Program-made: the position numbers and the translations under genes
Assembly (NCBI GenBank): GCA_963576565.1
Contig: OY755038.1
Coordinates: 178,487,138 to 178,551,137, forward strand
Source of the DNA: Aspidapion aeneum
Lineage: Eukaryota; Arthropoda; Insecta; Coleoptera; Brentidae
Length of the DNA: 64,000 nucleotides
Direction of reading: 5' to 3'
Part shown: positions 786 to 27,996 of the stretch, one piece after another
How the letters are laid out: every line of letters begins with the position of its first letter
Position numbering within the stretch: the first letter of the stretch is position 1
The notes under the pieces: model-generated
The model's input: only the letters and a program-made list of their open reading frames with translations
Told to the model about the DNA's origin: nothing
Databases searched by the model: none

Positions 786-1136
786 TTAGATTTCGTACTC
801 TACGTTGGGCGACCAGGGGTCATGATATGGGAGGATGCGGCTGACATGGACCACGTCAGTTTTGTCTTTTCTGTCTAGACCCAGACGAACTTCGTAGTTT
901 ACTGGCCCACTTTTCCTAATAATCTCATCGGGACCAAAGTACCGAAGTAATAACTTTTCCGAACGTCCAATCTTTCTCACTGGAGTAAAAACTTTTACTT
1001 TGTCCCCAGTTTTGTATTCTACATGACGTCTACTTTGGTCATATCTCTCCTTGCCCTTCACTTGGCGTCTCTCTAATTTTTCGACGGCATAGTTGCGAAC
1101 TGCTAGGGCCCTCTCGCAACTTACCAATATCTTCAA
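786..1136 (-). pseudogene. Gypsy integrase C-terminal domain
   Basis: 116 codons that continue the integrase frame after a frameshift near 1137-1151. The segment RYFGPDEIIRKSGPVNYEV resembles the GPY/F-type module at the C-terminus of many gypsy integrases, which binds DNA and multimerises. It is basic, rich in Lys and Arg, and ends at a stop codon close to the expected end of Pol. Identity is inferred from position and this motif. Confidence 0.75.
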
Positions 1137-1151
1137 ATTTTACATTTTGGT

Positions 1152-2603
1152 TTAACGATGCTTCAGAGGGAATACTGGGTGTCTTGCATGCAACAAAAAG
1201 GAAGGACTTACGCCTAAGGTACTTTGTACACTAGTGTTGTACGCAAACTGTACATGGTCAACCCATAAATCCCAGTCTTCCTGGTTCTCTGAAATATACA
1301 TGCTTAACATGGCTGCAATAGTCGCGTTCATTTTTTCTGTTGCCCCATTGCATTGGGGGTGGTATGACGTCGTTTGTTGCTTCAATATACCCATTATTCT
1401 TAACAATTCATTAAAAAACTCAGATCTAAACTGACTTCCTCTGTCTGATAGTATTTCTCTTGGACACGAATGATTCTTTATAATATTCTTAAAAATAAAT
1501 TCGGCAACTGTTTCTGCCCTTGAATTTGGCAAAGCAGCTATTTCGCAATAACGAGTTGCGTAATCTGTGGCACAAACTATAAATGTATTGCCTCTGTCCT
1601 TTGACTTCTTAAATGGGCCTAATAAGTCTATACCAATTTTTTGGAAAGGCAACCCTACTTCGATGGGTTTTAAATGACCTATTGGTTTTTTACTTGATTG
1701 TGCTTTCCTTGCCTGGCATAATCTACAGCCTTTCAAATATTTTTCTACATCTTTGTACATTCCATCCCAAAAATATCTCCCTTTGATTCTGTTTACCGTC
1801 TTTGCAATACCTAAATAACCGGCCAGTAGCTCGTTATGATTTGAAAATAATATCTCTGAAACTAAGTGCTGGGGAATAACTAAGAGTTTTTCGTTTACTG
1901 TAATTTTCGGATTTTTCTTATATAACATACCCTGTTCCACTTCAAAATTTTTTGCCCTTTTTCTTAGACTTATATCCACACTGTTATGACTTGGGTCCAA
2001 TACTGCTTGTTTAAGCTTTCTTAATTTAGGGTCCTTATTTTGCTCTTCTTCGATTTTTATGTGAGTCAATAAAAATGTAGGCACCTCAAAAGCATCCAAA
2101 TTTTCTTTTTTTGGTGACCCCACCGGATATCTTGAGAGACAGTCAACGTCTTTGTGTTTAGCCCCTGATTTATAAATAACTTCGTAATCAAACTCGCTTA
2201 ATTTTATAACCCATCTCGCCAATCTTCCTGATAAATGCTCTGAACTTTTTAAATAACACAGGCTGCAATGGTCCGTTTTTATAACAATCTTACGCCCAAA
2301 AAGTATATGTCGAAAGATAGACAATCCGTAAATAACAGCCAAAGCTTCTAGTTCGGATACCGTATAATTTTTCTCGGCCTTAGTAAGCGTTCTACTTCCA
2401 TATCCTATAGGGTGCATGTGACCATTTGCTTCTTGTAACACAATCACACCGAGACCATCTTTAGAAGCATCAGTTCTTACTTCGCAGCCTAAGTTGGGAT
2501 TAAAGTGAGATAACACGGGTGCCTCTGAAAGTTTCTGTTTTAACTGTTGGAATGCCACTTCTTGTTCCCATTCCCATTTATAACCTGGGTCATTTTTTGT
2601 CAC
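1152..2603 (-). pseudogene. Gypsy RNase H and integrase
   Basis: 483 codons. The first ~150 residues are RNase H: VRTDASKDGLG holds the first catalytic Asp, SELEALAV the Glu and IKTDHCSL the next Asp. The integrase follows, with Asp in IGIDLLGPF, Asp in LSDRGSQF and Glu in NGATEKMN forming the D,D,E triad. It would insert the element cDNA into the genome. The N-terminal HHCC zinc finger looks damaged: the usual AGHLG is AGYLG here, so the second His is Tyr, while CRLCQ keeps both cysteines. This is the longest surviving open stretch of the element. Confidence 0.9.
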
Positions 2604-3388
2604 TTCGTATAGAGGTTGTGCTATACGTGAAAAAATTGCTATAAATTTTCTATAATAATAGTCCTAAGAAACTTTGTACAGCCCTTTTTGTTTTTGGAGT
2701 AGGGAATGACTGGACTGCCATTATTTTTTCTGGATCTGGAGCGATGTGGTCTTTATTTACAATGTGACCGAGTATTTTGAGGCTTTCAAAGTTAGTCCAG
2801 CACTTCGTAGTCTTTCAAAGACTTGTAGATGTTTCTGGAAAGTTCTGCTGAATATAATGGTGTCATCCAAATATTGGAGTAGTGTGGACCATTTCAGACC
2901 TTTAAAGACTCTGTCAACCAAATCAGAAAATGTACTAGGGACGTTACATAGCCCAAAAGGCATCCTGTTAAATTCAAATAGACCATAACCTGAGGTAACA
3001 AAGGCTGTATGTTCTTTTGATGACTCTTCCATCTCCACTTGCCAATATCCACTAAATAAATCTAGAATTGAAAAATATTTAGAGTCTCCAAAGTAAGTTA
3101 ACATTTCTTCTATATTACTTAATGGGTAACTTGATTTTTTTGTAAAAAGGTTAATTTTTGAATAATTTACACAAAATCTTGTTTTTTCCGCCCCTTGATC
3201 CCCCTTATTCTTTACGAGGACAATAGGGCTGGAAAAGGGTGAACTTGAAGGCCGAATATATTGGCCTCTAACATTTCGTTAACCTGTTTTTCAATTATTT
3301 CTCTCTCTTTTGGGGAAACTTTATACGGTTTACTCCTGAATGGCTTGTAGTCGGTAAGCTCTATTTTGTGTTTAACAATATTTGTAGC
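2604..3388 (-). pseudogene. Gypsy reverse transcriptase, broken
   Basis: RT domain spread over at least three frames. The intact core is 2757-3104 and contains FSILDLFSGYWQVEM (first catalytic Asp) and LLQYLDDTIIFS, the YxDD box as YLDD. Upstream, KTRFCVNYSKIN and YPLSNIEEML are typical gypsy RT blocks and sit in the same frame as the core. The fingers start (KPYKVSPKEREIIEKQV) is in another frame, after a shift near 3250. The thumb at 2604-2757 is also shifted and has a stop. The enzyme would copy element RNA into cDNA, but this copy cannot. Confidence 0.88.
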
Positions 3389-3930
3389 TCATATGTTTCT
3401 TGAGTCTGTTGAAAAAACATCGCTGTATTCTTTAATTAACTGCTTAAGTTGCATTTCCTCGCTTTTTGTTAATTCCGCACCCATTTTGTACAAGCTTTCC
3501 AATAACGTTTCTTCACCCGGCCCTTTTTTAATTATGAATAACTCCTTTTTAAGACAATTATCTTCTTTTAAAAATGCAATAGTAGTTCCTTCATACACCA
3601 TCTGCGGTAAACTCGACCTGTTTGTTATTGAAACCATGTCCTTTTCTTTGCACTCCTGTAATGGTGGTTGTAAAAATAATCCTCTTTTTATCAAAAATTC
3701 TTCATTTGGACAAAATACATTTTTAAGTGGCCGCTGTTCCTTATTTTGTATGGACACAGTAAACTTTTTCTCCTCGAATGGCATTAAAAAATCTGTTTGT
3801 GACACACCAACTTTAGAGTACCTACACTGATTATCTTCATACAGTTTCTCTTGTTGAATGTAAAACATCTCTTCCAAGTTCTTTCTTTTAACTGCTTGAC
3901 TTTTGTCTTCATCTAAGAAATTGAGTCTTT
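3389..3930 (-). pseudogene. Gypsy Pol segment between OTU and RT
   Basis: Continues the frame that begins with the OTU catalytic His and runs toward RT. The C-terminal part (LKQLIKEYSDVFSTD) matches the acidic, aromatic segment that normally just precedes RT in gypsy Pol proteins. The middle (~120 residues) has no motif I recognise. The frame ends at about 3389, and RT resumes in a different frame. Confidence 0.7.
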
Positions 3931-4360
3931 CAATTAACTCATAGTGCCCATTTTTTGGGTCTCCACTAAATAGCAGGTTTACAGTATTGGCGTGATCCTT
4001 CGTGGATATCAAAATTGGCTTTTTTCTTAAAATTTCGGATAAAGAGATTCTTTTTTTCAGAAACGAAAATTTTTAAGTTAATATGGTATATTTCTCCCAA
4101 AGCTACACATTCCACATAGGTCCCATAAACGCCATCTTTCGTAATATTTCTGCAATATTCTTCTTTAGAAGGGTATATTATTTTATCTAAGATGGGGCTT
4201 TCTTCAAAAATATATGGTTGAAATTTTTCCCAATTTTTTAAAATATGCGCCGACGTAGCTCTTCTCAAAAGTCTATGTTTTTCCTGAGTTTAAAAAAAAG
4301 CAAGACTAACAGCGCGGTATAAACAGTTTCCATCTTTTTTAATTTCGTATTTTTCATAAT
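3930..4360 (-). pseudogene. OTU-like cysteine protease domain in gypsy Pol
   Basis: OTU-family proteases cut ubiquitin and its relatives with a Cys/His/Asp centre. Here KKDGNCLYRA carries the DGNC signature, with the Cys codon at 4323-4325 and the Asp codon at 4332-4334. GHYELI provides the terminal catalytic His at 3944-3946, in the NGHY context expected of OTU domains. The spacing of about 125 codons is normal for the fold. An in-frame TAA (4290-4292) lies just after SLAFF, and a frameshift between about 4012 and 3966 puts the His in another frame. The domain directly follows the macrodomain in the same frame. The assignment rests on motifs and has not been tested by a profile search. Confidence 0.75.
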
Positions 4361-4399
4361 CTTTATTTTTATGTAATAGCCGTTTTTCTTTTTGTGCCT

Positions 4400-4860
4400 T
4401 TTCTTTTTGAGGGTTAAACGTGCCTACTAATATTTCTATCTCTATGTCCTTGAAAATAAACAAAATCATATTTTTAACGATGCTCCATTCCAAACCATCC
4501 AAGCCGCTACCCATTCTCGGAATCGCCAGTTTATTAACTTTATGCAGTTTGATCTGATTACGTAATTTAATAAGTGCGTACCATAATATTTCATAACTTG
4601 GCTTGTCAAAAAATCTTTCTTTTGTTACTAAATAATAGATAAAACGACTTTTTTTATTTAAAAATGTAAGCCCCCCTGTTAATTGCTTTTGATTCACCAA
4701 TTTATCAATGTCTCCAGAGCTATTTCTAAAATGTAAAGCTATTCCCCTCGACATGACCATGTCTTCCGACACACAGTGAGCCAGAGAGTACTGCGAGTCA
4801 CATGTAAATATGTCCTTATATTGCTCCCAAAGTTTAATTTTTAAGTTTCGTTTTGTAAAT
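4400..4860 (-). pseudogene. TARG1/OARD1-like macrodomain in gypsy Pol
   Basis: About 150 codons resembling the TARG1 (OARD1, C6orf130) class of macrodomains, which remove ADP-ribose from acidic residues of proteins and deacylate O-acetyl-ADP-ribose. Visible hallmarks: SLAHCVSEDMVMSRGIA near the start, RFIYYLVTKERFF in the middle, and IPRMGSGLDGLEW. The Lys of VTKE (4620-4622) and the Asp of GLDG (4497-4499) fall where TARG1 has its catalytic Lys and Asp, so the active centre looks preserved. The domain runs upstream of the first available start: the reading frame is open back to a TAA at 4872-4874 and needs no start of its own, which fits a Pol-internal domain. Continuous with the OTU domain downstream. 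Confidence 0.82.
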
Positions 4861-4871
4861 TTATAATTACT

Positions 4872-5339
4872 TTATTGAAACTGCTCAAAGCTCTCTGTTC
4901 TTTTATATGCAAGCTGGCTTTTTGTTGTTTCCATAAATTCTTTATTTTTTAAATCTACCAAATTGCAAACCTTAGATTTCATCTGCAAAAATACTTGCCT
5001 GTTTTCAACACTACCCCCATTAATTAAAGACTTCTTTTGAAAATTAAATTTTTTTGATTGAATAAACTTTCTATTTTTTGAGTCAACTAATTCGCTTACC
5101 CTAGACTTAAATTTTAAAAATCTGTTTAAGCTCTCCTTGTGATTAGGAGTTTTGCGGCAATTATTCATATTTTTTGGGTACCTATTTTTAAACTTATTAG
5201 TTAAAAACGGCTTAGAGTACAGCGTATGCCTACCATTTTTAAAAATCCCGTCTTTCATATTATGTGATTGTCTACTGAACTTACTGCTTCTTTGAATGTG
5301 TAGGGGCAGAGTATGTCTCTGCGCATTTTGTTGCGACAT
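4872..5339 (-). pseudogene. Basic linker region upstream of the macrodomain
   Basis: 155 codons starting with a true ATG (5337-5339), very rich in Lys, Arg, Asn and Gln, with no recognised domain. A loosely repeated motif occurs twice: SRVSELVDSKNRKF and SKVCNLVDLKNKEF, each following a phrase that ends FLK or FLQM. It is in the same frame as the macro and OTU domains and is separated from them only by a TAA at 4872-4874. It could be an RNA-binding nucleocapsid-like segment or a linker; the function is unknown. Confidence 0.5.
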
Positions 5340-5440
5340 ACCATTATGAGAATCTCTTGTAAATAAACAGTAGTTTTTTAAATTTTTGATTTAAATTTGA
5401 TACCACTGTTTTTGTTTAATCTTTAAAAATCTTTAAAAAT

Positions 5441-5930
5441 CTAATCTAATTTTTGAAAATTAATAAGTACTCTATGTGACAGAAGAAATTTCATCCCCAA
5501 AATGATGTCTACCGATAGCTGATTGGCCACCAAGGCCTCGCAAGAAGTCTTTAAATTACCTATGTTTAAGAGTAATTTAGTTTTTCCAAGAAGCGGTATT
5601 TTTGCACCCCCTGCCCCTATTAAATGACTTGTGATAGAGCCCCCTTCGTAGTTTTCCAAAAAATTCAAATTTACTATATTTTCGCTTGACCCAGTATCAA
5701 TAACAATTTCAGACCATTTGTAATTTACAGAACCCCCAATCCTTAAAATGTTTCCTTGAGATCCCATATTAAAAGTGCTTAAAGGGGTTAATTCTGACCT
5801 TGCTTCCTTATAATAATTAACAGAACTGACTGGGGCATTATCGATTATTTTTGAAAACTTTTGAAAATCGCTTAAGTCACATATTTCTTTAGAACAAGTT
5901 AACCAATAGAAGTGATATTTATTTATATCT
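5441..5930 (-). pseudogene. Gypsy aspartic protease
   Basis: Retropepsin-type domain. IVIDTGSSENIVN holds the DTG active site, LLGKTKLLLNIG the flap region, and SVDIILGMKFL the C-terminal ILG hydrophobic motif. The enzyme would process the Gag-Pol polyprotein in the particle. The ATG at 5765-5767 is probably internal, because the same frame is open upstream to the BEL insertion (5934) and presumably joined Gag before it. A shift between about 5441 and 5339 separates it from the basic linker. Confidence 0.85.
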
Positions 5931-5933
5931 AAC
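5928..5933. repeat. Target site duplication of BEL-1, left
   Basis: TCTAAC here is repeated at 12767-12772 immediately after the 3' LTR. If the T after each LTR belongs to the LTR, the duplication is the 5-bp CTAAC. BEL/Pao integrases usually make 4-6 bp duplications, so either reading is normal. Confidence 0.85.
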
Positions 5934-6403
5934 TGTTAGCTCCCGCTAAATTTCGCGGTTGTTTATATATATTTTTAAAAACACACAACTGTATGAAGGA
6001 CAAAGCGCATTCCGCGTATTTGGACATGCGCACCAACATCCGGTGAGATCCTTGTCAATCGCCTAGAGAAAAAGGCGTGTTAATTTCGTTCTCCAACTAT
6101 TTCAAATATCTACACCTGAAAGTGCTCGATTTTTGTGTACTGAAGCATAGAACTAGAAACTTCAACCCTTCAGCTACGTGGTGACATCATTAGATCCATC
6201 AGGGGCCCCTTGGAAGTGGAGAATTTGGCTGCAAAAGTGGTGAGTGCATTTGTCTGATTACCGTTGTGTGCCACCAATATTTTTCCTATGGACGTTTTGA
6301 TTATTTCGTAAATTCATATCAATATTTATGTTTGTTCGCGCTATCATCAATTGAAATTTATACAGTCCATTGCCTTTAACGTTTTTCTAACCGTGGACTA
6401 ACA
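5934..6403 (+). repeat. BEL-1 5' LTR
   Basis: 470 bp with TGTTAG/CTAACA inverted ends. It matches the 3' LTR at 12297-12766 except for two substitutions that I can see (ATC versus AAC in CACCAAC..CGG, and TTG versus TTA near the end). A TATA-like GTTTATATATATTT lies about 20 bp in. A good splice-donor match, AAGTGGTGAGTGC, lies near 6238-6246. Confidence 0.95.
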
Positions 6404-6406
6404 TAA

Positions 6407-6427
6407 AGTGTTCCTTCCGAGCCGAAT
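6407..6427 (+). promoter_or_regulatory. Probable BEL-1 tRNA primer binding site
   Basis: Five bases after the LTR comes TGTTCCTTCCGAGCCGAAT. This is close to the complement of an animal tRNA-Tyr 3' end (CGAAGGACCA preceded by GGCT), with one mismatch and one extra C. It would prime minus-strand cDNA synthesis. The tRNA comparison is from memory, so the tRNA identity is tentative. Confidence 0.5.
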
Positions 6428-6793
6428 TATTTTAAATAATAAATCCATACGACGGTATTAATAATTATTTTCACGCAGAGCCAAACAAGGCGGCCGTGAA
6501 TTTTCGCATCGTAGTGAACGAGAGAAAATCGTGTTCGCACCGAAGGTCGGTGTGGTATGTGCAGGACACGTGTCTGGAGCGTGGTCATTCAGTAAACAAA
6601 GCGAGTAGGAATCAAAACAAACAAAACAAAAGTTCAGTGGTGTACCATATCATTTCGATATTTAAAACAATTTTCATCAATTGCGATAAATTAGTGCATA
6701 TTTTCGACAATTCGTCATTTTTCTATTTCAGAAGCATTAATTTAGCGTTAATTGTATATTTACCGACAATTTCGTCATTTCAAAGGTAAAATC

Positions 6794-9700
6794 ATGTCTG
6801 TCAAAAAAGCCGTACAAAAACGCAAGGGTTTTTTATCTGCGCTCACCGAGTGTTATGTGTTGTCAAAGACCGCGGAAAAGGATGAAAGAGCGAGAAACGA
6901 GTTTCAAGTGAGGTATTCCGATTTGGATGAAACCTTCGATAAATGCATGCTGGCGCATAATGACGTCATTATATTGATAGACGACACGGACGACGAAAAG
7001 TTTAAAACGCAGGATGCGATCCTTTCAGAAGCTCGTAAATATTTTTATGCGTGTAAGGGGGTTTACTCTAAAATATTTCCGGTTGAGGCCCCATCCTTTT
7101 CGGGATCATATGTTCGACAAAACGAATCTGAAACTCCAAAATTCAAAGAGTTAGGTATTCCCATATTCCGAGGTGATAAAAAATTATGGCCAAGCTTTTT
7201 CGATCTTTTTAATAACATTATAGATCAAAATCAAAGTCTAAGTAACGTTCGAAAACTTCAATATTTATTTTCATATCTCGAGGATGAGCCTTTAAAATTG
7301 ATATCAGGGATTAGCTTATCTGATCAAAATTATAAAATTGCTTATGACAAATTAGTCAATAGATATCAAAACAAGCGAGACCTCGCAAATGATGCTTTAA
7401 GCTCAATTATGAACTCCACCTTAAAAAACGAGTCAGCTAAAGAATTGCGTAATTTAATTGACACCTTTTCTGAATCCCTAGAAATTTTAAAATCACTTAG
7501 CTTTGACGTTGACAGTTGGGACTTTATTATTTTTTTCATTTTATTAGAAAAATTGGATATTCCAACGCGTTCAAATTTCGAAATGAGTCACGCCAATACT
7601 AATACCGAAATTCCCACTTTTCAGTCACTTTTTCAATTTCTAGAAAAAAGATGTAAAGTTTTGGAATCACTTCCTCAATCAACAGCACCCAAAAAGGTGC
7701 CTATATATCAAAAATCAAATTCTATGCAAAGTCAGTCTGGGCAAAAGCCTACCTATCAAAATTCAAATTCTATGCGAAATCAGTTTGGGCAAAAGCCTAC
7801 CTATAAATCATCCAATTCGCCTTTTATAGGACTGGCTGGCACCTCAACTAATTCGAGTACGGGAATAAAATGTTTCCGGTGTAATCAAGGTCACGTGCTT
7901 TCGAAATGTCAAACATTTCTTGATCTCTCACCTATCGATCGCCTATCTTTCGTCAAACAGAAAAAATTATGTCTAGCGTGTTTTCATCCCTTGCATAATG
8001 TAGATAGGTGCAAATCAAAATATTCATGCAGGACTTGCAATAGTAAAAGGCACCACACTTTAACTCATATCTTAGAAACTAATCAAGAGTCTGGAAGCCA
8101 AGATACTAGTCCTGTCATTCACACACCACCTGTCAATAATCTTCATGTGTCATTAAATGCCTCAGGACCTTCAGGTACCTTTCTTTTATGCACCGCCATA
8201 ATAGATGTTATGGACGGTTGCGGAAATTTTCAACCTGTAAGGGCACTGCTTGATTCTGGATCACAGACAGGATTCATCAGTGAAAAGTGTATTCAGCGTC
8301 TTAATCTTCCTAGGCGAAGTTACACCACTGAAATATTCGGATTAAATCAGATGTCTTCTTTCACTTCCAAAGGGCTCGTTCAATGTCACATTAAGCCACA
8401 AGGACAAGTCACTCCTTTACTTAATTTCGAAGCAATTGTTGTTCCACAACTATGTTCCAATATGCCTACATTCTCTTTGAACGATAATCATTGGAAACAC
8501 TTGCAAAACCTTAAACTTGCCGACCCATCTTATTTCAAATCTAGACCTGTGGACCTGGTTATTGGTTGCGAGCTATTCGCACAGATATTCAAGGAGGGCA
8601 GGGTTCTTGGACAGGTAGGGCAGCCTTCAGCCCTTGAAACTATCTTTGGCTGGGTCGTTATGGGAAAGGTTGACGAAGTGGGTAGTCTTACGGAACGAAC
8701 CAGTTGTTTTTTAACGAGTCATTCACCTCCTTTAGAGGTCATTCTCCCTAGGTTTTGGGAAATCGAACATTTGCCTAAAAAACAAATCTTATCAAAGGAA
8801 GAAAAACAGGCAGAATCAATTTTTACTGCTAGTGTAGTACGGCAACCGAGCGGTAGATTCATGGTAGATCTTCCGTTTAAAGACAAAATAAACCCTGACC
8901 TAGGAAATACTTATCCGCAAGCTTATCGTAGATTTTTACTTCTAGAAAATAGATTAATCAAAAATCCTGATCTGTACACTGCCTATTCAAGTTTCATGCA
9001 AGACTATATCGATTCTAATCATATGAGTTTAGTTTTATCTAGTCAACCAAAGGTCGACGTGTCGTGTTTTTTAGCACATCATTGCGTACTAAAGCCGGAA
9101 AGCTTAAGTACAAAATTAAGGGTAGTCTGGGATTGTTCGGCAGTCACCCCAAAAAATATTAGTCTCAATGACACATTGTTATCTGGACCGAAACTTCAAA
9201 AGGATATTGCTTCTTTACTCCTTACGTTTCGTCTTAATCCTATTGCCTACATTGCTGACATCAAACAGATGTTCCGTCAAGTCCTTATCAATCCTTATCA
9301 CCGTCCTTATCAAAGGATATTGTGGAGGTTTTCTCCACAGGACCCACTTTCAGTGTGGGAACTTTCTACTGTCACTTTTGGCATGACATGCTCACCTTTT
9401 CTAGCCATGCGTACCTTAAATGAGCTGGCAGAGAGACAAAAGGAACGTTTTCTTATGGCTAGTACTGTTCTAAAAACGTCAATCTATATCGACGATATCT
9501 TGGGAACTAGCCCTTCGCTTTCTGAAGCTCTCTCCCTTCAAACAGAACTCAATGATTTGTTGAAGTCGGGAGGATTTGAACTTAAAAAATGGGCAAGCAA
9601 TTGTCCTGAGTTATTGGCAACATTGCCAGAGTCCGATCGTCAAATGCATCTCTCTTTCGACAAGGAGGAACCCCACTTTATCAAAGTTTTAGGACTTCAA

Positions 9701-12064
9701 TGGCATCCAAAAAACGACATTTTTTCTTATCAATGCCGAATGAAGGACAAACCCCCAACCAAACGTTCTATTTTATCTATCATAGGGACAATCTTCGATC
9801 CCTTAGGTTTTCTTTGTCCCTTGTTGCTACAAGCAAAATTTATTTTGCAACAGTTGTGGATATCGAAAATAGGCTGGGACGAAGAACCAGATTCTTCTAT
9901 CATCGACTCTTGGAACAAACTTCGTTCTGAATTCCCGCTTCTTTCCAATTTTCAATTACCCCGACAAATCAAACTGTCAAAAACCAATACCTGTCAAATC
10001 ATCGGCTTCTGTGACGCTTCAATTCGAGGCTACGCAGGCGTCGTATATTTTCGTGTAGAAGAGGAAAACAATATATCTGTTTCTCTCATATCTGCAAAAT
10101 CTAGGGTCGCGCCTATAAAGTCACAAACTTTGGCTAGGCTAGAACTCCTAGGCGCATTTCTTTTAAGCGAATTAATTGACTTCGTTTTATCTAGCTATGA
10201 AGGAAAAATGACTTTTACAAATATCGTTACTTTCTGCGATTCGCAAGTCGTATTGCACTGGCTTTCATCCCCTCCTAATCGCTGGCAAACCTTTGTTGGA
10301 AATCGAGTCAGTAGAATCCAAGAAATCATTCCCTCAAACTCGTGGCGCTACATTCCTTCTGCTTTGAATGCAGCCGATATTGCGTCACGAGGGGCCACCC
10401 CTTCACAGCTCATGTCACATGACATGTGGTGGAACGCACCGTCGTTTTTGTGGTCTCCCGAAAACGAATGGCCCGATTTTCATAAACCAAAAATGCCGAT
10501 TGATTTCGGAGATATTAATCTGGAGGAAAAGCCAAAAGTCTGTTGCAATGCGATAATTGATGTCAACTTCTTAGATCAGCTTCTTATCAAATATTCCTCT
10601 ATATCAAAAATTCAACGTATCATTTGTTATGTCCTTCGAATAGTTAACCTTTTTCAAAACCATTCCTATCAAAAACCCACTAAGCCGCCGGACCAAAAAG
10701 TTATTTTTGAGAATATTGTTTTTCCTACCACCGGTGAGATGCAAAGTGCGTTACACCTTCTTATCAAACGCGTGCAAGGTTCTTGTTTTTCTGAGCTTTT
10801 TTCCGCGTTATCTAAGGATAAACCAATACCGAAACCTTTGCGAAAACTTTCACCTTTTCTTGATGATAATAATATCATTAGAGTCGGTGGCAGATTACAA
10901 AAATCTGACCTTTTGTCTTATTCTGCAAAACACCCCGTCTTACTTTCGAGTGACCATCGTTTAACTACTCTTCTTATCGAGTCCGCTCATCGACAATTTC
11001 TTCATCCTGGGTTTAAAACATTACATAATCTGCTTTTACAGCAATTTTGGATATTATCTGCCAGACGGGCAATTCAAAGAACCATATCCAAGTGCTTGCA
11101 ATGTTTTAGAATCAACCCTAAACCCTATAGACCGCCCATAATGAGTTCACTTCCCGCTCATCGAATCAATCAACTAAAACCTTTTTCGAGTGTAGCTATC
11201 GACTTTTGTGGACCTTTCTTTGTGATTCCTCATCGTTACCGTGGTTGTAAAGCTTTCAAATCGTATGTCTGTGTGTTTGTCTGTACGGCCACACATTGCG
11301 TGCATTTGGAATTAACCATGGAACTGTCCACCGAAGGGTTCGTAGGTGCATTCCATCGATTCATTTCCAGACGCGGAAGCGTGACGCAATGCTGGTCAGA
11401 TCAAGGCAGTAATTTTATAGGGTTTCGTAACCAATTACTGGATTACGCAAGAAGTGCTGCCACCAGACTTTCTATTCGTTGGCATCTGGGACCTCCTCTC
11501 AGTCCACATTTCAATGGCCTGGCAGAAGCTGGCGTTAAAAGTTTTAAAACTCACTTTGTACGAGTTGTCGGCGACCAGAAGTTGTCTATCATGGAGATGT
11601 CCACCCTTACCTGTCGCATAGAAGCCGTACTGAATAGTCGCCCTTTATCTCCTGCCTCTTCAGACCCACACGATCTTCAACGTCTTACCCCTGGGCATTT
11701 TTTGACACTTGAACCCCTTAATTCAGAAATTCCGGAGTCACATTTGTCCGAGGTTCCTCTAAATCGGCTCTCGAGATGGCAACTAATCCAAAAACTACAT
11801 AATGATTTTTGGAAACGGTATTCTATAGAGTATTTGCATACGCTACAACAGCGACACAAGTGGACTGATTTGTCCCCAAATATCAAATTAAATGATTTGG
11901 TTATCATAACAAGTGATCACATTCAATCGCCTTTGAAATGGCCGGTCGGTCGGGTCATCGAACTGCATCCCGGCGGGGACGGTCAGGTGCGTGTTGCGAC
12001 GGTACAAACGGTTACCGGTGTTTATAAGCGGCCAGTTGTAAAACTGTGCCTCTTGCCAAATTAA
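6794..12064 (+). CDS. BEL/Pao Gag-Pol polyprotein
   Basis: 1756 residues from ATG 6794 (MSVKKAVQKR, which aligns with the start of the second BEL Gag); an in-frame ATG lies 42 bp upstream at 6752. In order: coiled-coil-like Gag and DUF1759-type capsid (to ~residue 290), a 16-residue repeated linker (~305-340), three Cys/His knuckles (CFRCNQGHVLSKC ~360; CLACFHPLHNVDRC; CRTCNSKRHH ~412), DUF1758-type aspartic protease with LLDSGSQTGF (~482), RT with YIDDIL (~897), RNase H with GFCDASIRG (~1070), integrase zinc finger (~1400-1440), D,D,E in AIDFCGPF, WSDQGSNF and GLAEAGVKS (~1468, 1534, 1576), and a C-terminal DUF5641-like end (WPVGRVIELHPG). All catalytic motifs look intact. Confidence 0.96.
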   Translation: MSVKKAVQKRKGFLSALTECYVLSKTAEKDERARNEFQVRYSDLDETFDKCMLAHNDVIILIDDTDDEKFKTQDAILSEARKYFYACKGVYSKIFPVEAPSFSGSYVRQNESETPKFKELGIPIFRGDKKLWPSFFDLFNNIIDQNQSLSNVRKLQYLFSYLEDEPLKLISGISLSDQNYKIAYDKLVNRYQNKRDLANDALSSIMNSTLKNESAKELRNLIDTFSESLEILKSLSFDVDSWDFIIFFILLEKLDIPTRSNFEMSHANTNTEIPTFQSLFQFLEKRCKVLESLPQSTAPKKVPIYQKSNSMQSQSGQKPTYQNSNSMRNQFGQKPTYKSSNSPFIGLAGTSTNSSTGIKCFRCNQGHVLSKCQTFLDLSPIDRLSFVKQKKLCLACFHPLHNVDRCKSKYSCRTCNSKRHHTLTHILETNQESGSQDTSPVIHTPPVNNLHVSLNASGPSGTFLLCTAIIDVMDGCGNFQPVRALLDSGSQTGFISEKCIQRLNLPRRSYTTEIFGLNQMSSFTSKGLVQCHIKPQGQVTPLLNFEAIVVPQLCSNMPTFSLNDNHWKHLQNLKLADPSYFKSRPVDLVIGCELFAQIFKEGRVLGQVGQPSALETIFGWVVMGKVDEVGSLTERTSCFLTSHSPPLEVILPRFWEIEHLPKKQILSKEEKQAESIFTASVVRQPSGRFMVDLPFKDKINPDLGNTYPQAYRRFLLLENRLIKNPDLYTAYSSFMQDYIDSNHMSLVLSSQPKVDVSCFLAHHCVLKPESLSTKLRVVWDCSAVTPKNISLNDTLLSGPKLQKDIASLLLTFRLNPIAYIADIKQMFRQVLINPYHRPYQRILWRFSPQDPLSVWELSTVTFGMTCSPFLAMRTLNELAERQKERFLMASTVLKTSIYIDDILGTSPSLSEALSLQTELNDLLKSGGFELKKWASNCPELLATLPESDRQMHLSFDKEEPHFIKVLGLQWHPKNDIFSYQCRMKDKPPTKRSILSIIGTIFDPLGFLCPLLLQAKFILQQLWISKIGWDEEPDSSIIDSWNKLRSEFPLLSNFQLPRQIKLSKTNTCQIIGFCDASIRGYAGVVYFRVEEENNISVSLISAKSRVAPIKSQTLARLELLGAFLLSELIDFVLSSYEGKMTFTNIVTFCDSQVVLHWLSSPPNRWQTFVGNRVSRIQEIIPSNSWRYIPSALNAADIASRGATPSQLMSHDMWWNAPSFLWSPENEWPDFHKPKMPIDFGDINLEEKPKVCCNAIIDVNFLDQLLIKYSSISKIQRIICYVLRIVNLFQNHSYQKPTKPPDQKVIFENIVFPTTGEMQSALHLLIKRVQGSCFSELFSALSKDKPIPKPLRKLSPFLDDNNIIRVGGRLQKSDLLSYSAKHPVLLSSDHRLTTLLIESAHRQFLHPGFKTLHNLLLQQFWILSARRAIQRTISKCLQCFRINPKPYRPPIMSSLPAHRINQLKPFSSVAIDFCGPFFVIPHRYRGCKAFKSYVCVFVCTATHCVHLELTMELSTEGFVGAFHRFISRRGSVTQCWSDQGSNFIGFRNQLLDYARSAATRLSIRWHLGPPLSPHFNGLAEAGVKSFKTHFVRVVGDQKLSIMEMSTLTCRIEAVLNSRPLSPASSDPHDLQRLTPGHFLTLEPLNSEIPESHLSEVPLNRLSRWQLIQKLHNDFWKRYSIEYLHTLQQRHKWTDLSPNIKLNDLVIITSDHIQSPLKWPVGRVIELHPGGDGQVRVATVQTVTGVYKRPVVKLCLLPN
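7706..7801 (+). repeat. 48-bp in-frame tandem repeat in BEL-1 gag
   Basis: Two 48-bp units (7706-7753 and 7754-7801), each encoding a 16-residue module of the form YQ-x-SNSM-x2-Q-x-GQKPT, followed by a partial third. They sit in the flexible linker between the capsid-like region and the zinc knuckles. They preserve the frame and probably arose by slippage or unequal exchange. Confidence 0.9.
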
Positions 12065-12279
12065 AAGTAATTTTAATTTTCTACCTTTTACCGGGTATTA
12101 CAATAGGTTTTTTATTTTTAATTTTTTTTGAATTTTTTGCTTGTTTGTTTTGCCTTTTTTCGGGATTTCGTTATATCTAAATAAACTTACGATACTTATC
12201 TGTTTTCATTCATTTATATTTATCGGTCGATTCTTTTTCTTATATCTATATCTGTCCGGTTGAGATTCTAAATTTGTGT

Positions 12280-12296
12280 GTTTTGGAGGGCAGTTA
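12280..12296 (+). promoter_or_regulatory. BEL-1 polypurine tract region
   Basis: GGAGGGCAGTTA immediately precedes the 3' LTR. A short purine-rich run at this place normally primes plus-strand synthesis. The second BEL element has a comparable GGGCGGCCGGGAAAA at the same position. Confidence 0.6.
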
Positions 12297-12766
12297 TGTT
12301 AGCTCCCGCTAAATTTCGCGGTTGTTTATATATATTTTTAAAAACACACAACTGTATGAAGGACAAAGCGCATTCCGCGTATTTGGACATGCGCACCAAC
12401 AACCGGTGAGATCCTTGTCAATCGCCTAGAGAAAAAGGCGTGTTAATTTCGTTCTCCAACTATTTCAAATATCTACACCTGAAAGTGCTCGATTTTTGTG
12501 TACTGAAGCATAGAACTAGAAACTTCAACCCTTCAGCTACGTGGTGACATCATTAGATCCATCAGGGGCCCCTTGGAAGTGGAGAATTTGGCTGCAAAAG
12601 TGGTGAGTGCATTTGTCTGATTACCGTTGTGTGCCACCAATATTTTTCCTATGGACGTTTTGATTATTTCGTAAATTCATATCAATATTTATGTTTGTTC
12701 GCGCTATCATCAATTAAAATTTATACAGTCCATTGCCTTTAACGTTTTTCTAACCGTGGACTAACA
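12297..12766 (+). repeat. BEL-1 3' LTR
   Basis: 470-bp copy of the 5' LTR with two substitutions, about 99.6% identical. It is followed by TCTAAC (12767-12772), the target duplication, and then by the interrupted gypsy gag. Confidence 0.95.
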
Positions 12767-12772
12767 TCTAAC

Positions 12773-13275
12773 AACCCCTTTTCAAAGTAGTATTTAAAAT
12801 CATTAATGTCAAAATTAGGGTAAATTTCCCTGTAAAGAGACTGTAATTCATAAAAATAGACAATCACAGACTCGTCATGTGACTGGTTAAAATGTGCAAG
12901 TCTTTTGCGCAAACATTTTCGGTAAGCTTTTATGTCAAAAAATTCCGTTAAAAAATCTTCTTTTACTTGATCCCAACTTTTACTAAGGTTTTGTATATTT
13001 TTTGCGTAAATTTCAAACCATTTAAGTGAGGCACAGTGTAAGGCAGTTTGTAACAATTGGTCCATCTAGTTTGGTGAGCCACTTGTTCGTAATGCTCTAA
13101 AAACCCTTGGGCACTTATACTTTGAAAGGGGTAAAAAGTACAAGGTGATTTATAGGGAGGTAAAATGGCACATTTGTCACTCGCAAGTGACGTCCTAATT
13201 GTTGCCTGCATATCTTTTTTTATATCGTAGTTAATTTTTTGACACTCAGTATACCAATCAGCTGTTTTAAAATTA
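12773..13275 (-). pseudogene. Gypsy Gag fragment
   Basis: Retrotrans_gag-like capsid sequence in two frames. The first frame holds FQSISAQGFLEHYEQVA; after a shift near 13060-13075 the second holds SLKWFEIYAKNI, SWDQVKEDFLTEFF and YFYELQSLYREIYP, the Trp/Phe-rich helical pattern of gypsy capsids. It is cut at 12772 by the BEL element and resumes at 5933 and below. A stop lies upstream near 13275, so the true N-terminus is not visible. No CCHC knuckle is seen on either side of the break. Confidence 0.75.
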
Positions 13276-14127
13276 ATTTAAATTTAACGAAACTAGAATA
13301 AATTCCTGTAATAAAATATGTATGGTAATTTACCTTTCGCAACTACACAGACAACTTTTGGCTGAATCGGCAAAAAAATTAACTCTAATAACCTAGCAAA
13401 TGCCTAACAAACTTCACTTATTTAATTTAATATGAACTCTATAAACAAACAATACTTCTGAGACTATAGCGACAAATTAAAAATGTATGTGAAAAATCAT
13501 TTAAAACTTGTAAATTTTGACGAATTTACTAAAAGCAATCGATACAAAACGGCGACTTCCACCACTTTTGTCGTGATTTATTTTATCCGCAGGCTTAAAA
13601 CCTAATTTTTGCCTCTAAAAGGATTCAAAAATAGATTTTATCCCCGATAAAACAAATCAACAACTATTTACGTTTAAGGGGGTAAACTCAGATGGAAGGT
13701 AAGCCAACAAGAGGTCGGACCAGTCTTCTTTATTGATTACTCTCGCAAGCGATTGTTATGACAGGGAAACTACAATCAATTCTACTTGCGTAAGTAACCC
13801 CGAAAACTGGTTTCCCTCCTTAATCAGTTTTCTTGTATCTTAAAAGTTTTTATTTCAAACAAGCAATAAATGTTGTACATGTTGGCCTGAAAAATAATTA
13901 AAGCCACCCTAACCTTGTCTGTGTAGCCTGAACTAATTTTATTAAATACTACTTACATTATTCAACTTGGAGGGAGCACTTTCGGCTCCCATCACATGTA
14001 ACTTTCACCAAAACCAAAAAAAAACTCCCCGGTCGAGGCTCCCATTTGCCCTGTCCTCGATTTTAATTTTATTATTTAAACAATTAATGTTTTTACAAGC
14101 TTGCAAATTATTATTAAATTGATCATA
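13276..14127. other. Non-coding stretch, probable gypsy 5' UTR/LTR
   Basis: No ORF is convincing. It lies upstream of gypsy gag on the minus strand, so it should contain that element's leader and 5' LTR, but I could not define boundaries or a primer site. A short C/T-rich inverted motif occurs twice near 13970-14035 (GAGGGAGC..GGCTCCC and CCGGTCGAGGCTCCC). Confidence 0.4.
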
Positions 14128-14882
14128 CAGGGTGCTTCATAACAATATATCCATATACGGTTGTCTTCGTTCGGGATACCTTTGAATATATAAGTTTCCA
14201 GCGCCCTGTCAATTATCATTATTTTCCCAGTAACATTTTAACATGTCATACTTTTCATCGTTTTGATACATATTTCAAATTAAAATTAAAAACGCTTTTG
14301 TGCAAAATAATTTCATATCAAAGCGTAATGTCTAATTGTTTAAACAATTAAAAACAATGACAAGACGCCAAAACGCAAGGCCAACTTGATTTGCATAGTA
14401 TCAGACAACAAAATTATAGGAGTAGTTAACGTTAACAGTAGGATTTGACCGCAAGGCTTTCATGTCAATGGCGCATGACGTCATTCAACGCATCTAGACA
14501 AAAATAAAAAACTTTAATTATCTCCGAAACCGCTCAATAAATGACATATGATACATCATTTTGATAAGAATTCAATGACGAATTCGAAAATAAATTAAAA
14601 TATACGCCATTCCATAAGAAAAAATAAAACTTTATGTCATATCTCAAAAAATAAAAGTGACAGTTAAATTTTAATTTAGCGGGTGAATTCCTCGTGACAA
14701 AGTCTATAAAATTGCAATTTACTCTAAATCAAAATTTCCACTAATAACGAAGTTATAGACGAGACGATATTTCAAAATGCGGTTTTCACTATAAGTCTTC
14801 TCTTGAAATTTGAGCCTCGCAATGCGTGGTTCCCCTGGAAGTACCTTAAATCCCCTAAAAGTGCCCAATTTGGGACACCCTG
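14128..14882. mobile_element. TA-flanked MITE-like repeat, CAGGGTG ends
   Basis: Begins CAGGGTGCTTC and ends TTTGGGACACCCTG, each flanked by TA. The right ~110 bp resembles the right arm of the element at 34201-34978 (TGAAATTTGAG..CTCGCAA and the terminal block). The left arm is different or decayed. Probably a non-autonomous Tc1/mariner-type element. Confidence 0.6.
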
Positions 14883-15017
14883 TACCTGGGGTATAGGCCA
14901 ATTTAGTGGTTTTTTGAGTGTAACTCGAGAACCGCTTAATCTACAGCAAATATTAGACCCACTATGAATACATCTTAACAATCTGCATATTTTTTATATT
15001 TTATGTTTTTTTTGTCT

Positions 15018-17080
15018 TAAATCAATCATTGATTATGCTATAGGTGAACAACACTCGCAATTAAAGTGGTATGATGTGCGAGCACTTCGTGGTGTTACCT
15101 GTGGATCTGACCACCATCTGGTAAAAGCAAAAATATTATTCCCTTTAAGAAAAACAAATAAGGACGAAAGTATTAGAGAAAATGAAAACCTAGAAAGCAT
15201 CGAAGACAATCAAAAATACAACTTTAGAAGTCTAGAAATCGAAAGTACTCAAATATTGTATCAGAACCGATTACAAAATACAGGAAATGGTCAAAGAAAA
15301 AAAACGTACATACTTGAAATGGCTCAGTACTAAGGAGCAAAGAGACCTAGAAATCTACAGGGAAACCAGAAGACTGCTAAGAAATTTGATACGCACAGAA
15401 AAAATGAAATGTTCGAGCGCAAGTGCCACGACATAAATACACACGTAGGAGGTAGGTAGAGTTCTGAAGTATGGAAATTCATTTCTACAGTAAAAAACCC
15501 AATAAAGGACTGCTGCAGGAGACGAGACCCGAATATCTGGCAGCCTCTCCGAGAAGAGACATAGAAGTACATGGAGAGGAAGTAATCATCGAAAAAGAAA
15601 TGATAAAGAATAATATTAAAAAGCTTAAATCCGGAAAAGTTAGCGGACCTGTGGGAATATATGCTGAAATGCTCAAATATGGATCAGAGAAACTACTCGA
15701 AAATCTCACATATATTATTAACCAATGCATAAACTGACATCCAGTACCTAATGATTGGAAAATTGGATTCATATTCTCAATACATAAAAAAGGAAACAAG
15801 CTGGATTGCAACAATTACAGAGGAATTTCAGTAACCAGTACTCTAAGTAGATTGTACGGTAGGATTGTTAGAGATCTAATAGAGAATGATTTTCATGAAC
15901 AAGAAGAAGAAGAGCAAAGTGGGTTTCGCGCAGGCAGATCTTGTAGTGATATTGTTTTTTGTCTTAAGCAAGTAATTGAGAAAAGGAGCGCCAGAAATAT
16001 AGAGACTCATGTTACCTTTGTGGACCTACAAAAAGCATATGATACCGTTCCAGTAGAAAAATTATGGACAGTGTTAGAGCAAACTAATATCAATCAAACA
16101 TACATAAAAGCGATAAAAGAACTATACAAAGTGTCAAAATCTATAATTAAAATTGGAAATAGACTTTCAAGAGTAACAAAAGGCTTAAGACAGGGATGTT
16201 GTATCTCCCCAACTCTTTTTAAAATATATATCGCAGTAGCTCTAAAAAACTGGAAACGTAAAGTGCACGGCATGGGAATACAACTTAACGACCGATTTAC
16301 CATATACACAACACAGTTTGCTGACGACCAAGTAATTGTGGCTAATGATAAAGAAGACATGGAGTATATGATGAGAAAGTTGACAGAAGAATACCAAAAG
16401 TAGGGATTATCAGTGAGCGTGGACAAGACACAGTACTTATGTATTGGAAATGAATCCAGTGAGTTAGTACTAGAAAATGGTCAAACAATATTTCCATGCA
16501 ATGAGTATGTATACTTGGGTGTCACATTTGATAAAACAGGTACAGACTGTAAAGAATTGGAAAAAAGAATAGTAAAAGCAAAAAAAGTTATTGGATGTCT
16601 TAACAGTATTTTATGCAGCAGAGAGATAAAAAAGAATGTAAAATTTAACATATATGAAACAATGGTCAAAAGCACGCTGTTGTATGGAATAGAGACTTGT
16701 CGCGTAACAGAAAAACACAAAACAAAAATGGAAAGTGTCGAAATGGATGCAATAAGAAGATCAATGAGAATATCTAGAATAGATCACATAAGAAATGAGA
16801 TCATAAAAGAAAGAATGGGAATCGAAGGAAGCATAACGGATGACATCACTAGAAGGCAACTGATATGGTACGACCATGTACAACGGATGAACGACGAAAG
16901 ATTGCCAAAGCAGGTCCTAGAATGGCAACCAATAGGGCGTCCTAGAATGGCAACAGTCAATCCAAAGATCAATGAGTCAAAAAAATCTGACAGAGGATGA
17001 TTGTCAGGATCGAAGGAGGTGGAGAATAGGCGTCGGAAACGTAGAAAAATGTTCTGAACCGACATAGTAGTAGTAGTAGT
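15018..17080 (+). pseudogene. 5'-truncated RTE-like LINE, copy A
   Basis: Starts inside the APE-type endonuclease: LKWYDVRALRGVTCGSDHHL has the C-terminal SDHH motif. The RT follows, with NNYRGISV, EEEQSGFRAGRS, VTFVDLQKAYDTV (catalytic Asp), GLRQGCCISP and TQFADDQVIVA (FADD box). The C-terminal region (STLLYGIETCRV, RQLIWYDHVQRM, RLPKQVLEW) is typical of insect RTE-type LINEs. The 3' end is a (TAG)n tail at 17065-17080. Stops at about 15735 and 16401 and frameshifts near 15450-15750 make it dead. A short deletion removes the KRGRPK segment that copies C and D keep. Confidence 0.88.
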
Positions 17081-17553
17081 TTTTTTTGTAAAACCAGTAG
17101 TTTTCTTGAAAAAATCAAAAAACCTAAAAATAAAATAGCGTATTTGAGGAACTTACAGAATTTATAGTATAGAGACACATAAAAAACAAAGTATTGATAG
17201 TGATTTGGAGAGGCCATTATAGTAGAAGCTAATCACAATTTGTTTGAGTAAAATCGATGTCATAATAAAAAAGTTTCGTACATTTGATTCAAACTCCTTT
17301 TCGCCATCTTTAAACAAAGATGGCGGGTTGTTTATGCAGGATTTTCGCAGGTATCTCCATTTTTTTTGGGACATGGTCTTATGACGAATCGATTAAAATA
17401 TATGAGTATCGGTTTGCAATTCAAGCCCAAAATCCTACTGGGCTCTTAGACTAAATTGATCCCATTAGCTGTGTCAACTTAGATAGGATGACAATTTGTT
17501 GTATCGTTTAAGCATTATGCCAATAATAATCACAAAATACCATTCTGGACTTA
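17081..17553. other. Non-coding flank of LINE copy A
   Basis: AT-rich, with no ORF I support. It holds a small hairpin around CCATCTTTAAACAAAGATGG. The same sequence is present at 19068-19540 through the tandem duplication. Confidence 0.5.
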
Positions 17554-17825
17554 CGGGGTGGGCCAAAAAAAAACAGTCAATTTTTTTTTCATGATCACTT
17601 TTGAAATGTACAATCGATTTGAGTTTTGACTATATATATTTTTAGCGACTATATATATTTATATAGATAATGGACGAAATTAAAACGTATCCTTCAAATA
17701 TGCTCGTTTATTCTTGTGTTGCGAATATGTTTTAATGATTTTTTTAAATCAGTAAAAAACCTGCATTCTTGCCACGCACAGCAAGATACGAACCAGCAAA
17801 ATCGGTTTGGTGGTTCTACAAAAAA
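17554..17825 (+). mobile_element. Truncated fold-back element (left end only)
   Basis: First 272 bp of the element that is complete at 19541-21362, cut inside a poly-A run where duplication unit 2 begins. It is preceded by TA, like the full copy. Confidence 0.85.
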
Positions 17826-19068
17826 ACTCTAAGTAGATTGTACGGTAGGATTGTTAGAGATCTAATAGAGAATGATTTTCATGAACAAGAAGAAGAAGAG
17901 CAAAGTGGGTTTCGCGCAGGCAGATCTTGTAGTGATATTGTTTTTTGTCTTAAGCAAGTAATTGAGAAAAGGAGCGCCAGAAATATAGAGACTCATGTTA
18001 CCTTTGTGGACCTACAAAAAGCATATGATACCGTTCCAGTAGAAAAATTATGGACAGTGTTAGAGCAAACTAATATCAATCAAACATACATAAAAGCGAT
18101 AAAAGAACTATACAAAGTGTCAAAATCTATAATTAAAATTGGAAATAGACTTTCAAGAGTAACAAAAGGCTTAAGACAGGGATGTTGTATCTCCCCAACT
18201 CTTTTTAAAATATATATCGCAGTAGCTCTAAAAAACTGGAAACGTAAAGTGCACGGCATGGGAATACAACTTAACGACCGATTTACCATATACACAACAC
18301 AGTTTGCTGACGACCAAGTAATTGTGGCTAATGATAAAGAAGACATGGAGTATATGATGAGAAAGTTGACAGAAGAATACCAAAAGTAGGGATTATCAGT
18401 GAGCGTGGACAAGACACAGTACTTATGTATTGGAAATGAATCCAGTGAGTTAGTACTAGAAAATGGTCAAACAATATTTCCATGCAATGAGTATGTATAC
18501 TTGGGTGTCACATTTGATAAAACAGGTACAGACTGTAAAGAATTGGAAAAAAGAATAGTAAAAGCAAAAAAAGTTATTGGATGTCTTAACAGTATTTTAT
18601 GCAGCAGAGAGATAAAAAAGAATGTAAAATTTAACATATATGAAACAATGGTCAAAAGCACGCTGTTGTATGGAATAGAGACTTGTCGCGTAACAGAAAA
18701 ACACAAAACAAAAATGGAAAGTGTCGAAATGGATGCAATAAGAAGATCAATGAGAATATCTAGAATAGATCACATAAGAAATGAGATCATAAAAGAAAGA
18801 ATGGGAATCGAAGGAAGCATAACGGATGACATCACTAGAAGGCAACTGATATGGTACGACCATGTACAACGGATGAACGACGAAAGATTGCCAAAGCAGG
18901 TCCTAGAATGGCAACCAATAGGGCGTCCTAGAATGGCAACAGTCAATCCAAAGATCAATGAGTCAAAAAAATCTGACAGAGGATGATTGTCAGGATCGAA
19001 GGAGGTGGAGAATAGGCGTCGGACAACGTAGAAAAATGTTCTGAACCGACATAGTAGTAGTAGTAGTT
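17826..19068 (+). pseudogene. RTE-like LINE fragment, copy B
   Basis: Duplicate of the RT C-terminal half and 3' tail of copy A. It keeps the same TAG stop (18387-18389), FADD box and KRGRPK deletion, so it arose by segmental duplication, not by a separate insertion. The (TAG)n tail ends near 19068. Confidence 0.92.
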
Positions 19069-22074: not shown

Positions 22075-22080
22075 TTTTTA

Positions 22081-22095
22081 TGGTCCTTCTATCCA
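22081..22095 (+). promoter_or_regulatory. Probable BEL-2 tRNA primer binding site
   Basis: TGGTCCTTCTATCC lies six bases after the 5' LTR. The first nine bases complement an animal tRNA-Tyr 3' end (GAAGGACCA); the rest does not fit well. The comparison is from memory. Confidence 0.55.
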
Positions 22096-22404
22096 AATTC
22101 AAAAAAATACAACAAAAATCAAAATTCATTTTTCTTAAACCAAAAATCTAAAAATTTTAAGACGCCATTAAGGACCAACCCAAAAGGGGCAGGCTTTATC
22201 AGTGACGAAGCGACACGCCTTTCCAAACACATGTTTAAAAATTTTATCGATTTCTGCAGTTGAAATTTAAAGGTCGCGGTCGACAAAAACAACTGTTTTT
22301 TGTTTACCTACGAACGAAGGTACAAAATAAAATAAAATAATAAGAAATTCTGAAAAACGTTTTAGTGTTCAGTGATAATATTTATTACTAATTAATCAAT
22401 TAAA

Positions 22405-27991: not shown

Positions 27992-27996
27992 TTATC

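What the first reader, a model, noticed from the sequence alone, without database searches (positions are those of the whole stretch)
3930..4860. A gypsy Pol carrying a TARG1-like macrodomain fused to an OTU protease
Seen: between aspartic protease and RT on the minus strand there is a macrodomain with the HCVSED, YYLVTK and GSGLDGLEW motifs, including the Lys and Asp expected at a TARG1 active site, then DGNC and GHYE motifs of an OTU cysteine protease. Known: TARG1-class macrodomains reverse ADP-ribosylation and OTU domains reverse ubiquitination; unrelated RNA viruses carry macro or OTU-type domains against host defence. Inferred: the retroelement acquired an ADP-ribosyl hydrolase plus deubiquitinase module, perhaps to counter PARP- or ubiquitin-based restriction or protect its own proteins. 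I do not know a described gypsy lineage with this pair.
Basis: partly seen in the sequence, partly recalled or inferred. Interest (0 to 1): 0.87.

Follow-up and report, generated by a model that had tools for sequence, protein, structure and literature searches.

The report
Retrotransposon carrying ADP-ribose and ubiquitin erasers
A decayed copy of a jumping gene (a Ty3/gypsy retrotransposon) carries, inside its replication polyprotein, a domain of an ADP-ribose-stripping enzyme family and a broken domain that looks like a ubiquitin-removing protease; other elements of that kind carry the first domain too, which suggests that such genomic parasites take it up to undo host marks.

Summary
Between PR and RT of a minus-strand Ty3/gypsy copy lies a TARG1/OARD1-class macrodomain (phmmer 4e-28 to human TARG1; fold nearest TARG1, then DarG), then an OTU domain (middle piece Pfam OTU 4.2e-6; DGNC before it, GHYE after it). 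The copy is dead: a stop and a frame change break the OTU, other lesions break pol, and a younger BEL/Pao element splits gag from PR. The macrodomain is not confined to this copy. Five other gypsy-type sequences carry one: L022 in the same PR-macro-RT order, P0030 before PR, P0032 between RNase H and integrase, P0033 at the end of Gag, P0031 scrambled. All six keep the catalytic Lys and conserved Asp (L022 by eye). The OTU was seen in this element alone (1 of 6). Macro domains in fish retroviruses and OTU in DNA transposons are in print; I found no report of TARG1 in gypsy in ten searches of open-access papers, most hits unread. Most likely a particle-borne module that erases ADP-ribose, and here ubiquitin, from the element or host factors. 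Function is inferred.

The parts
12768..13065 (-). gag fragment of the gypsy copy, cut off from the rest by the BEL element
   Evidence: Pfam Retrotrans_gag 6.2e-8 for ORF 12739-13065; the last bases of that ORF run into the BEL LTR
5934..12767 (+). younger BEL/Pao element nested in the gypsy copy (not part of the finding; interrupts it)
   Evidence: 471-bp LTRs 5934-6404 and 12297-12767, 99.6% identical; CTAAC on both outer sides; Peptidase_A17, DUF1759, RVT_1
5444..5933 (-). aspartic protease (PR), DTGSSENIV motif
   Evidence: gag-asp_proteas 1.3e-4, 22.9 bits, below its cut-off of 28.2; open stretch 5935-5444
4875..5390 (-). linker between PR and macrodomain, no known domain
   Evidence: no Pfam match at E <= 1
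4419..4817 (-). TARG1/OARD1-class macrodomain (open stretch 4293-4871)
   Evidence: phmmer 4e-28 to 4j5r; Foldseek TARG1 2.8e-16; no Pfam Macro match
4620..4622 (-). codon of the Lys that aligns with what I take to be TARG1 catalytic Lys84
   Evidence: K84A is the dead mutant in PMC8501950
4497..4499 (-). codon of the invariant Asp of GSGLDGLEW
4296..4442 (-). OTU N-terminal part with DGNC (Cys codon 4323-4325)
   Evidence: Peptidase_C65 0.00036, 20.5 bits against cut-off 24.3
4032..4286 (-). OTU middle part, after an in-frame stop
   Evidence: Pfam OTU 4.2e-6, 27.7 bits against cut-off 23.3
3938..3949 (-). GHYE, candidate OTU catalytic His, in another frame
   Evidence: motif position; no OTU profile match of its own
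3392..3937 (-). linker between OTU and RT
   Evidence: open stretch 3392-4072; no Pfam match above a cut-off
2760..3278 (-). reverse transcriptase
   Evidence: RVT_1 9.2e-21
1155..2663 (-). RNase H and integrase (H2C2, rve)
   Evidence: RT_RNaseH 3e-32, Integrase_H2C2 6.7e-19, rve 4.3e-9
789..1139 (-). integrase C-terminal SH3-like domain
   Evidence: SH3_Tf2-1 3.2e-9, Integrase_p58_C 4.3e-8

Best explanation
This is a decayed copy of a Ty3/gypsy retrotransposon whose lineage built a TARG1-class ADP-ribosyl hydrolase domain and an OTU-type cysteine protease domain into Pol between PR and RT. SHOWN: the two domains, their order and strand, the retained macrodomain catalytic residues, and macrodomains at several places in Pol or Gag of other gypsy-type elements. 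INFERRED: that the module belongs to the lineage and not to this copy alone; that it is made as part of Gag-Pol, packed in the virus-like particle and freed by PR; that the macrodomain removes ADP-ribose from element proteins, cDNA or RNA, or from host factors such as silencing complexes; that the OTU removes ubiquitin from Gag/Pol or the integration complex. Both would erase host marks that silence, degrade or mis-repair the integrating element.
For: Domain identity. Gypsy setting on one strand with gag beyond the nested BEL. Same PR-macro-RT order in one 1019-residue frame of L022. Macrodomain in P0030, P0031, P0032 and P0033. TARG1 is the best PDB match of P0030 (7.8e-38), P0032 (9.8e-37), L022 (3e-28) and P0033 (1.2e-22) (P0031 not run). 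Lys and Asp kept in six of six (five by alignment; L022 by eye), which points to an enzyme and not only a reader of ADP-ribose. The nearest fold among viral proteins is in Kadipiro virus VP8 (44% identity), then an unnamed entry (33%) and a Cressdnaviricota protein (34%); more distant macro folds are in thrips flavi-, negev- and virga-like viruses, iridoviruses, an entomopoxvirus and phages. 17 phage records, some of them duplicates, encode relatives. TARG1 undoes ADP-ribosylation of protein (PMC4695847, passages) and of thymidine in DNA (PMC8501950, passages). SIRT6 ADP-ribosylates KAP1 to silence L1 (PMC4695847, passage). OTU domains recur in Ginger1 and Helitron transposons (PMC2836005, passages).
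Against: The copy is broken and cannot show activity or present selection. The OTU was found in no other element. Pfam Macro matches neither the window piece (E <= 1) nor P0030 (E <= 0.1). No activity, packaging or cleavage was shown. No second copy of this family was seen. Macrodomain trees are poorly resolved, so the number of captures is unknown.
Confidence: 0.55

Rival explanations
1. The domains serve integration and DNA repair, not defence: they tune PARP and ubiquitin signalling at the integration break so that the gap is repaired in the element's favour.
For: TARG1 acts in DNA-damage signalling (PMC4695847, passage); the Ginger authors propose that OTU/Ulp1 act on repair during transposition (PMC2836005, passage); in P0032 the macrodomain lies directly before the integrase.
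Against: In P0033 the macrodomain is at the end of Gag and in P0030 before PR, away from integrase. A TARG1-like domain also sits in Kadipiro virus VP8, an RNA virus (recalled) that does not integrate.
Confidence: 0.25
2. Passenger capture: host OARD1-like and OTU transcripts were copied into the element by chance and carried without benefit.
For: Capture of host sequence by retroelements is known (for example PMC5408684, passages, which also reports no clear departure from neutrality); the OTU is seen in one element only; the copy is dead.
Against: Six gypsy-type sequences with the macrodomain at several places, all with Lys and Asp; open 1234-, 1258- and 1019-residue frames through the macrodomain in P0030, P0032 and L022.
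Confidence: 0.12
3. A local insertion: a host retrogene with macro and OTU landed in this one copy.
For: No second copy of this family could be examined (own-genome search unanswered); the macro-OTU pair is unique to it so far.
Against: L022 has the macrodomain at the same place in one open frame with PR and RT. The stretch has the strand of the element and lies between PR and RT.
Confidence: 0.06

Closest known systems
TARG1/OARD1 (C6orf130) terminal ADP-ribose protein glycohydrolase
   Same: Macrodomain sequence (4e-28), fold, the Lys that is catalytic in TARG1 and the Asp
   Different: Embedded in a retrotransposon Pol and followed by OTU; activity untested
DarG antitoxin (DNA ADP-ribosyl glycohydrolase)
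   Same: Second closest fold (5m3e); NCBIfam DarG model matches at 4e-14
   Different: Far below the DarG curated cut-off (52.6 against 250 bits)
Teleost epsilon-like endogenous retroviruses with macro-domain ORFs (Basta et al. 2009, cited in PMC4977317)
   Same: Retroelements that carry a macro domain
   Different: Retroviruses, additional ORFs; the passage seen mentions neither gypsy Pol nor OTU (the original paper is not held)
Ginger1 DNA transposons and Helitrons with OTU (PMC2836005)
   Same: Mobile elements with OTU; Ginger1 has a gypsy-like integrase
   Different: DNA transposons; OTU C-terminal of the Ginger1 transposase; no macrodomain in the passages seen
Orchid Ty3/Gypsy elements with an m6A demethylase domain (PMC9289625)
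   Same: Gypsy element that acquired an enzyme which erases a mark
   Different: Another enzyme class (2-ODD), plant host (search listing and one passage)
Macrodomain of Kadipiro virus VP8 and of other viruses in BFVD
   Same: Macro fold in unrelated viruses; Kadipiro VP8 44% identical
   Different: Not retroelements; most of the others are 13-34% identical, so their class is not settled

Membership tests
Ty3/gypsy LTR retrotransposon | Order Gag-PR-RT-RNase H-INT on one strand, INT after RNase H | tested here: met
   PR by a match below cut-off; gag lies beyond the nested BEL
Ty3/gypsy LTR retrotransposon | Flanking LTRs | tested here: inconclusive
   No LTR pair between 1-900 and 12768-16000; the 3' end may lie outside the window
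TARG1/OARD1 macrodomain | Full-length match closer to TARG1 than to other macrodomain classes | tested here: met
   TARG1 4e-28 against 0.0016 for the next, DarG; same order by fold
TARG1/OARD1 macrodomain | Pfam Macro (PF01661) match | tested here: not met
   not listed at E <= 1; P0030, with TARG1 at 7.8e-38, is not matched either, so this is a weak criterion for the class
TARG1/OARD1 macrodomain | Catalytic Lys and conserved Asp | tested here: met
   Lys role from PMC8501950; Asp role recalled
TARG1/OARD1 macrodomain | ADP-ribosyl hydrolase activity | not testable with these tools
   needs protein
OTU cysteine protease | Profile match above gathering score | tested here: met
   PF02338 27.7 bits, cut-off 23.3, for the middle piece
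OTU cysteine protease | Catalytic Cys (DGNC) and His in order | tested here: inconclusive
   DGNC and GHYE in order, but over three broken pieces; the His piece has no OTU profile match
OTU cysteine protease | Deubiquitinase activity | not testable with these tools
   needs protein
DarG | NCBIfam equivalog cut-off | tested here: not met
   52.6 bits against 250
DarG | Neighbouring darT | not tested
   no search for DarT was made

The most novel reading that the evidence does not exclude
Ty3/gypsy elements recurrently take up a TARG1/DarG-class enzyme because animals mark retroelement nucleic acid (single-stranded cDNA or RNA) with ADP-ribose as a defence. The captured domain is a cDNA/RNA de-ADP-ribosylase carried in the particle, as phages carry relatives, and this lineage added an OTU to erase ubiquitin as well.
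Probability: 0.15. Interest if true: 0.95.

Novelty: new variant of a known kind. Interest (0 to 1): 0.74.

Why it matters
If the domains are active, retrotransposons face ADP-ribosylation-based (and perhaps ubiquitin-based) restriction strong enough to select for counter-enzymes. That would tie retroelements to the conflict in which viruses with macrodomains are engaged, and would make testable which host PARP or sirtuin marks retroelements. It also supplies compact natural fusions of an ADP-ribose eraser with RT/integrase proteins.

Tried and rejected
Rejected: chance motif match. Unlikely for the macrodomain: a feature of this one copy only. Left open: one capture or several. The six retro macrodomains do not form one clade in the best tree (two pairs, WINDOW+P0030 at 98/86 and P0033+L022 at 98/94), but the AU test does not reject one clade (p 0.151 with five rows, 0.236 with four; 0.0996 with six), and the bootstraps had not settled. 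Rows left out: alignment A1 took 18 of the 29 hits; the trees left out P0029 (too short) and the second tree also P0027 (long branch); 9 of the 19 viral loci went in; L020 and L021 did not.

Led nowhere: OTU search of long proteins (16 candidates, none at E <= 1); viral contigs with the macro piece, the RNase H-integrase piece, P0030 and P0033 (no relatives); no tblastn match at 1e-3 of the window's other pieces (PR, linkers, OTU middle, RT, RNase H-integrase) in the 19 loci L001-L019; LTRs of the gypsy copy; OTU middle piece against PDB (best 0.067, an L protein; OTUD2 at 0.5). The two macro searches admitted candidates of about 106-337 aa and 600-1907 aa only, so proteins between and beyond were not seen.

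Literature searches, all ten: searches gave 0 papers; others gave 5, 1, 11, 23 (8 listed) and 13. Of the listed papers, passages of seven were seen; the others by title and start of abstract only.

Full report
What is there. The minus strand holds one Ty3/gypsy copy between about 789 and 13065 (outer limits not found): SH3-like integrase end (1139-789), integrase and RNase H (2663-1155), RT (3278-2760), a linker, then the stretch in question, a further linker (5390-4875) and PR (5935-5444), by Pfam or reading frame (PR below its cut-off). A BEL/Pao element lies on the other strand at 5934-12767. Its 471-bp LTRs are 99.6% identical and it has CTAAC on both outer sides, so it probably jumped into the gypsy copy recently; gag continues beyond it (Retrotrans_gag 6.2e-8 at 12739-13065). 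The gypsy copy is dead: pol changes frame several times and has stops.

The macrodomain. The open stretch 4871-4293 matches human TARG1/OARD1 at 4e-28; the next class, DarG, comes at 0.0016. An AlphaFold model made with 18 relatives (mean pLDDT 85.4) is nearest to TARG1 (Foldseek 2.8e-16, 39% identity), then DarG. Against: Pfam's Macro model does not list this piece at E <= 1, nor P0030 at E <= 0.1, although P0030 matches TARG1 at 7.8e-38; I take this as a weakness of that model for the class. The Lys and Asp of the active site are invariant in the 19-row alignment and in the five retro macrodomains plus human TARG1 aligned.

The OTU domain. DGNC stands at the end of the same open stretch (Peptidase_C65 0.00036 and OTU 0.058, both below cut-off). 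After one in-frame stop, Pfam OTU matches at 4.2e-6, above its cut-off. GHYE follows in another frame, without a profile match. The OTU-profile matches are in order (positions 2-15, weak, then 24-99). By the patterns used, DGNC-type and HY-type motifs occur 1 and 2 times in the six frames of the whole window. I accept an OTU domain that is broken in this copy. PDB sequence matches of the middle piece are weak (best 0.067).

Other elements. Searching proteins of gypsy-Pol length with the macro piece gave 4 proteins at E <= 0.001 among 245 candidates, and all four have retroelement domains. P0030 is macro-PR-RT-RNase H-INT. P0032 is RT-RNase H-macro-INT, with a weak PR before RT. P0033 is Gag-macro. 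P0031 has zinc knuckle, PR and the H2C2 integrase finger, then a C-terminal macro, and looks scrambled (by eye). A scan of prokaryote genome contigs gave 3 loci among 157 pattern matches. Two are Paenibacillus. The third, L022 (JAAXHO010000208.1, 3274 bp, filed under a Poribacteria bin), encodes PR (below cut-off), macro (at cut-off), RT and RNase H in one frame of 1019 residues; I read it as eukaryotic contamination of the bin, which is inference. TARG1 is the best PDB match of P0030, P0032, P0033 and L022 (P0031 not run). None of the five has a Pfam OTU at E <= 0.1.

Evolution. RT identity of the window copy to P0032, P0030 and L022 is 42, 40 and 27%, which suggests separate lineages; no RT tree with named references was built. 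In the macrodomain tree WINDOW pairs with P0030 (98/86) and P0033 with L022 (98/94), although within each pair the domain sits at different places; P0032 goes with P0006, a 141-residue protein (89/94). This suggests repeated capture or exchange between elements, but a single origin is not rejected (p-AU 0.151 and 0.236, 0.0996), several branches are long and the bootstraps had not settled.

Wider setting. The nearest folds among viral proteins are Kadipiro virus VP8 (44% identity), an unnamed entry (33%) and a Cressdnaviricota protein (34%); more distant macro folds occur in thrips flavi-, negev- and virga-like viruses, iridoviruses, an entomopoxvirus and phages. Seventeen phage records, some duplicates, encode relatives, as do 19 viral-contig loci. 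So relatives of this domain are found in many genetic parasites.

Mechanism. TARG1 reverses thymidine-linked DNA ADP-ribosylation and needs Lys84 for it (PMC8501950, passages); it also acts on protein (PMC4695847, passages). The latter review reports that SIRT6 silences L1 by ADP-ribosylating KAP1. The Ginger paper proposes that OTU/Ulp1 domains act in transposition and repair (PMC2836005, passages). I therefore favour a particle-borne eraser of host ADP-ribose and ubiquitin marks. Delivery, substrate and benefit are inferred, not shown.

Novelty. Macro domains in fish endogenous retroviruses are in print (passage in PMC4977317), and so are OTU domains in DNA transposons (passages). Ten searches of the open-access library brought up no report of TARG1 in Ty3/gypsy, alone or with OTU, in the listings or in the passages seen of seven papers; most listed papers were not opened. 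Subscription papers and Repbase reports were not searchable, so it may be recorded there. I rate it a new variant of a known kind.

Noticed in passing
window 5934-12767 (+): BEL/Pao element with one 1770-residue ORF and LTRs 99.6% identical, nested in the gypsy copy with CTAAC on both sides: likely a recent insertion.
   Followed up: partly
window 21608-27993 (+): Second BEL/Pao element; 469-bp LTR-like repeats 99.8% identical; gag and pol in separate frames.
   Followed up: partly
window 15840-17826 and 17826-19814: Head-to-tail duplication of about 1.99 kb, 99.8% identical, holding what looks by eye like part of a non-LTR reverse transcriptase; could be real or an assembly artefact.
   Followed up: no
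L022 (JAAXHO010000208.1): A gypsy-like retroelement contig filed in a Poribacteria genome bin, probably eukaryotic contamination.
   Followed up: partly
L002-L019 and phage records: TARG1-like macrodomains in viral contigs, presumably phages, and in phage records; five of five loci tried match phrog_335, named phosphatase. Candidates for countering ADP-ribosylation-based defence.
   Followed up: partly
P0001: Protein with two tandem TARG1-like macrodomains that are nearly identical to each other.
   Followed up: no
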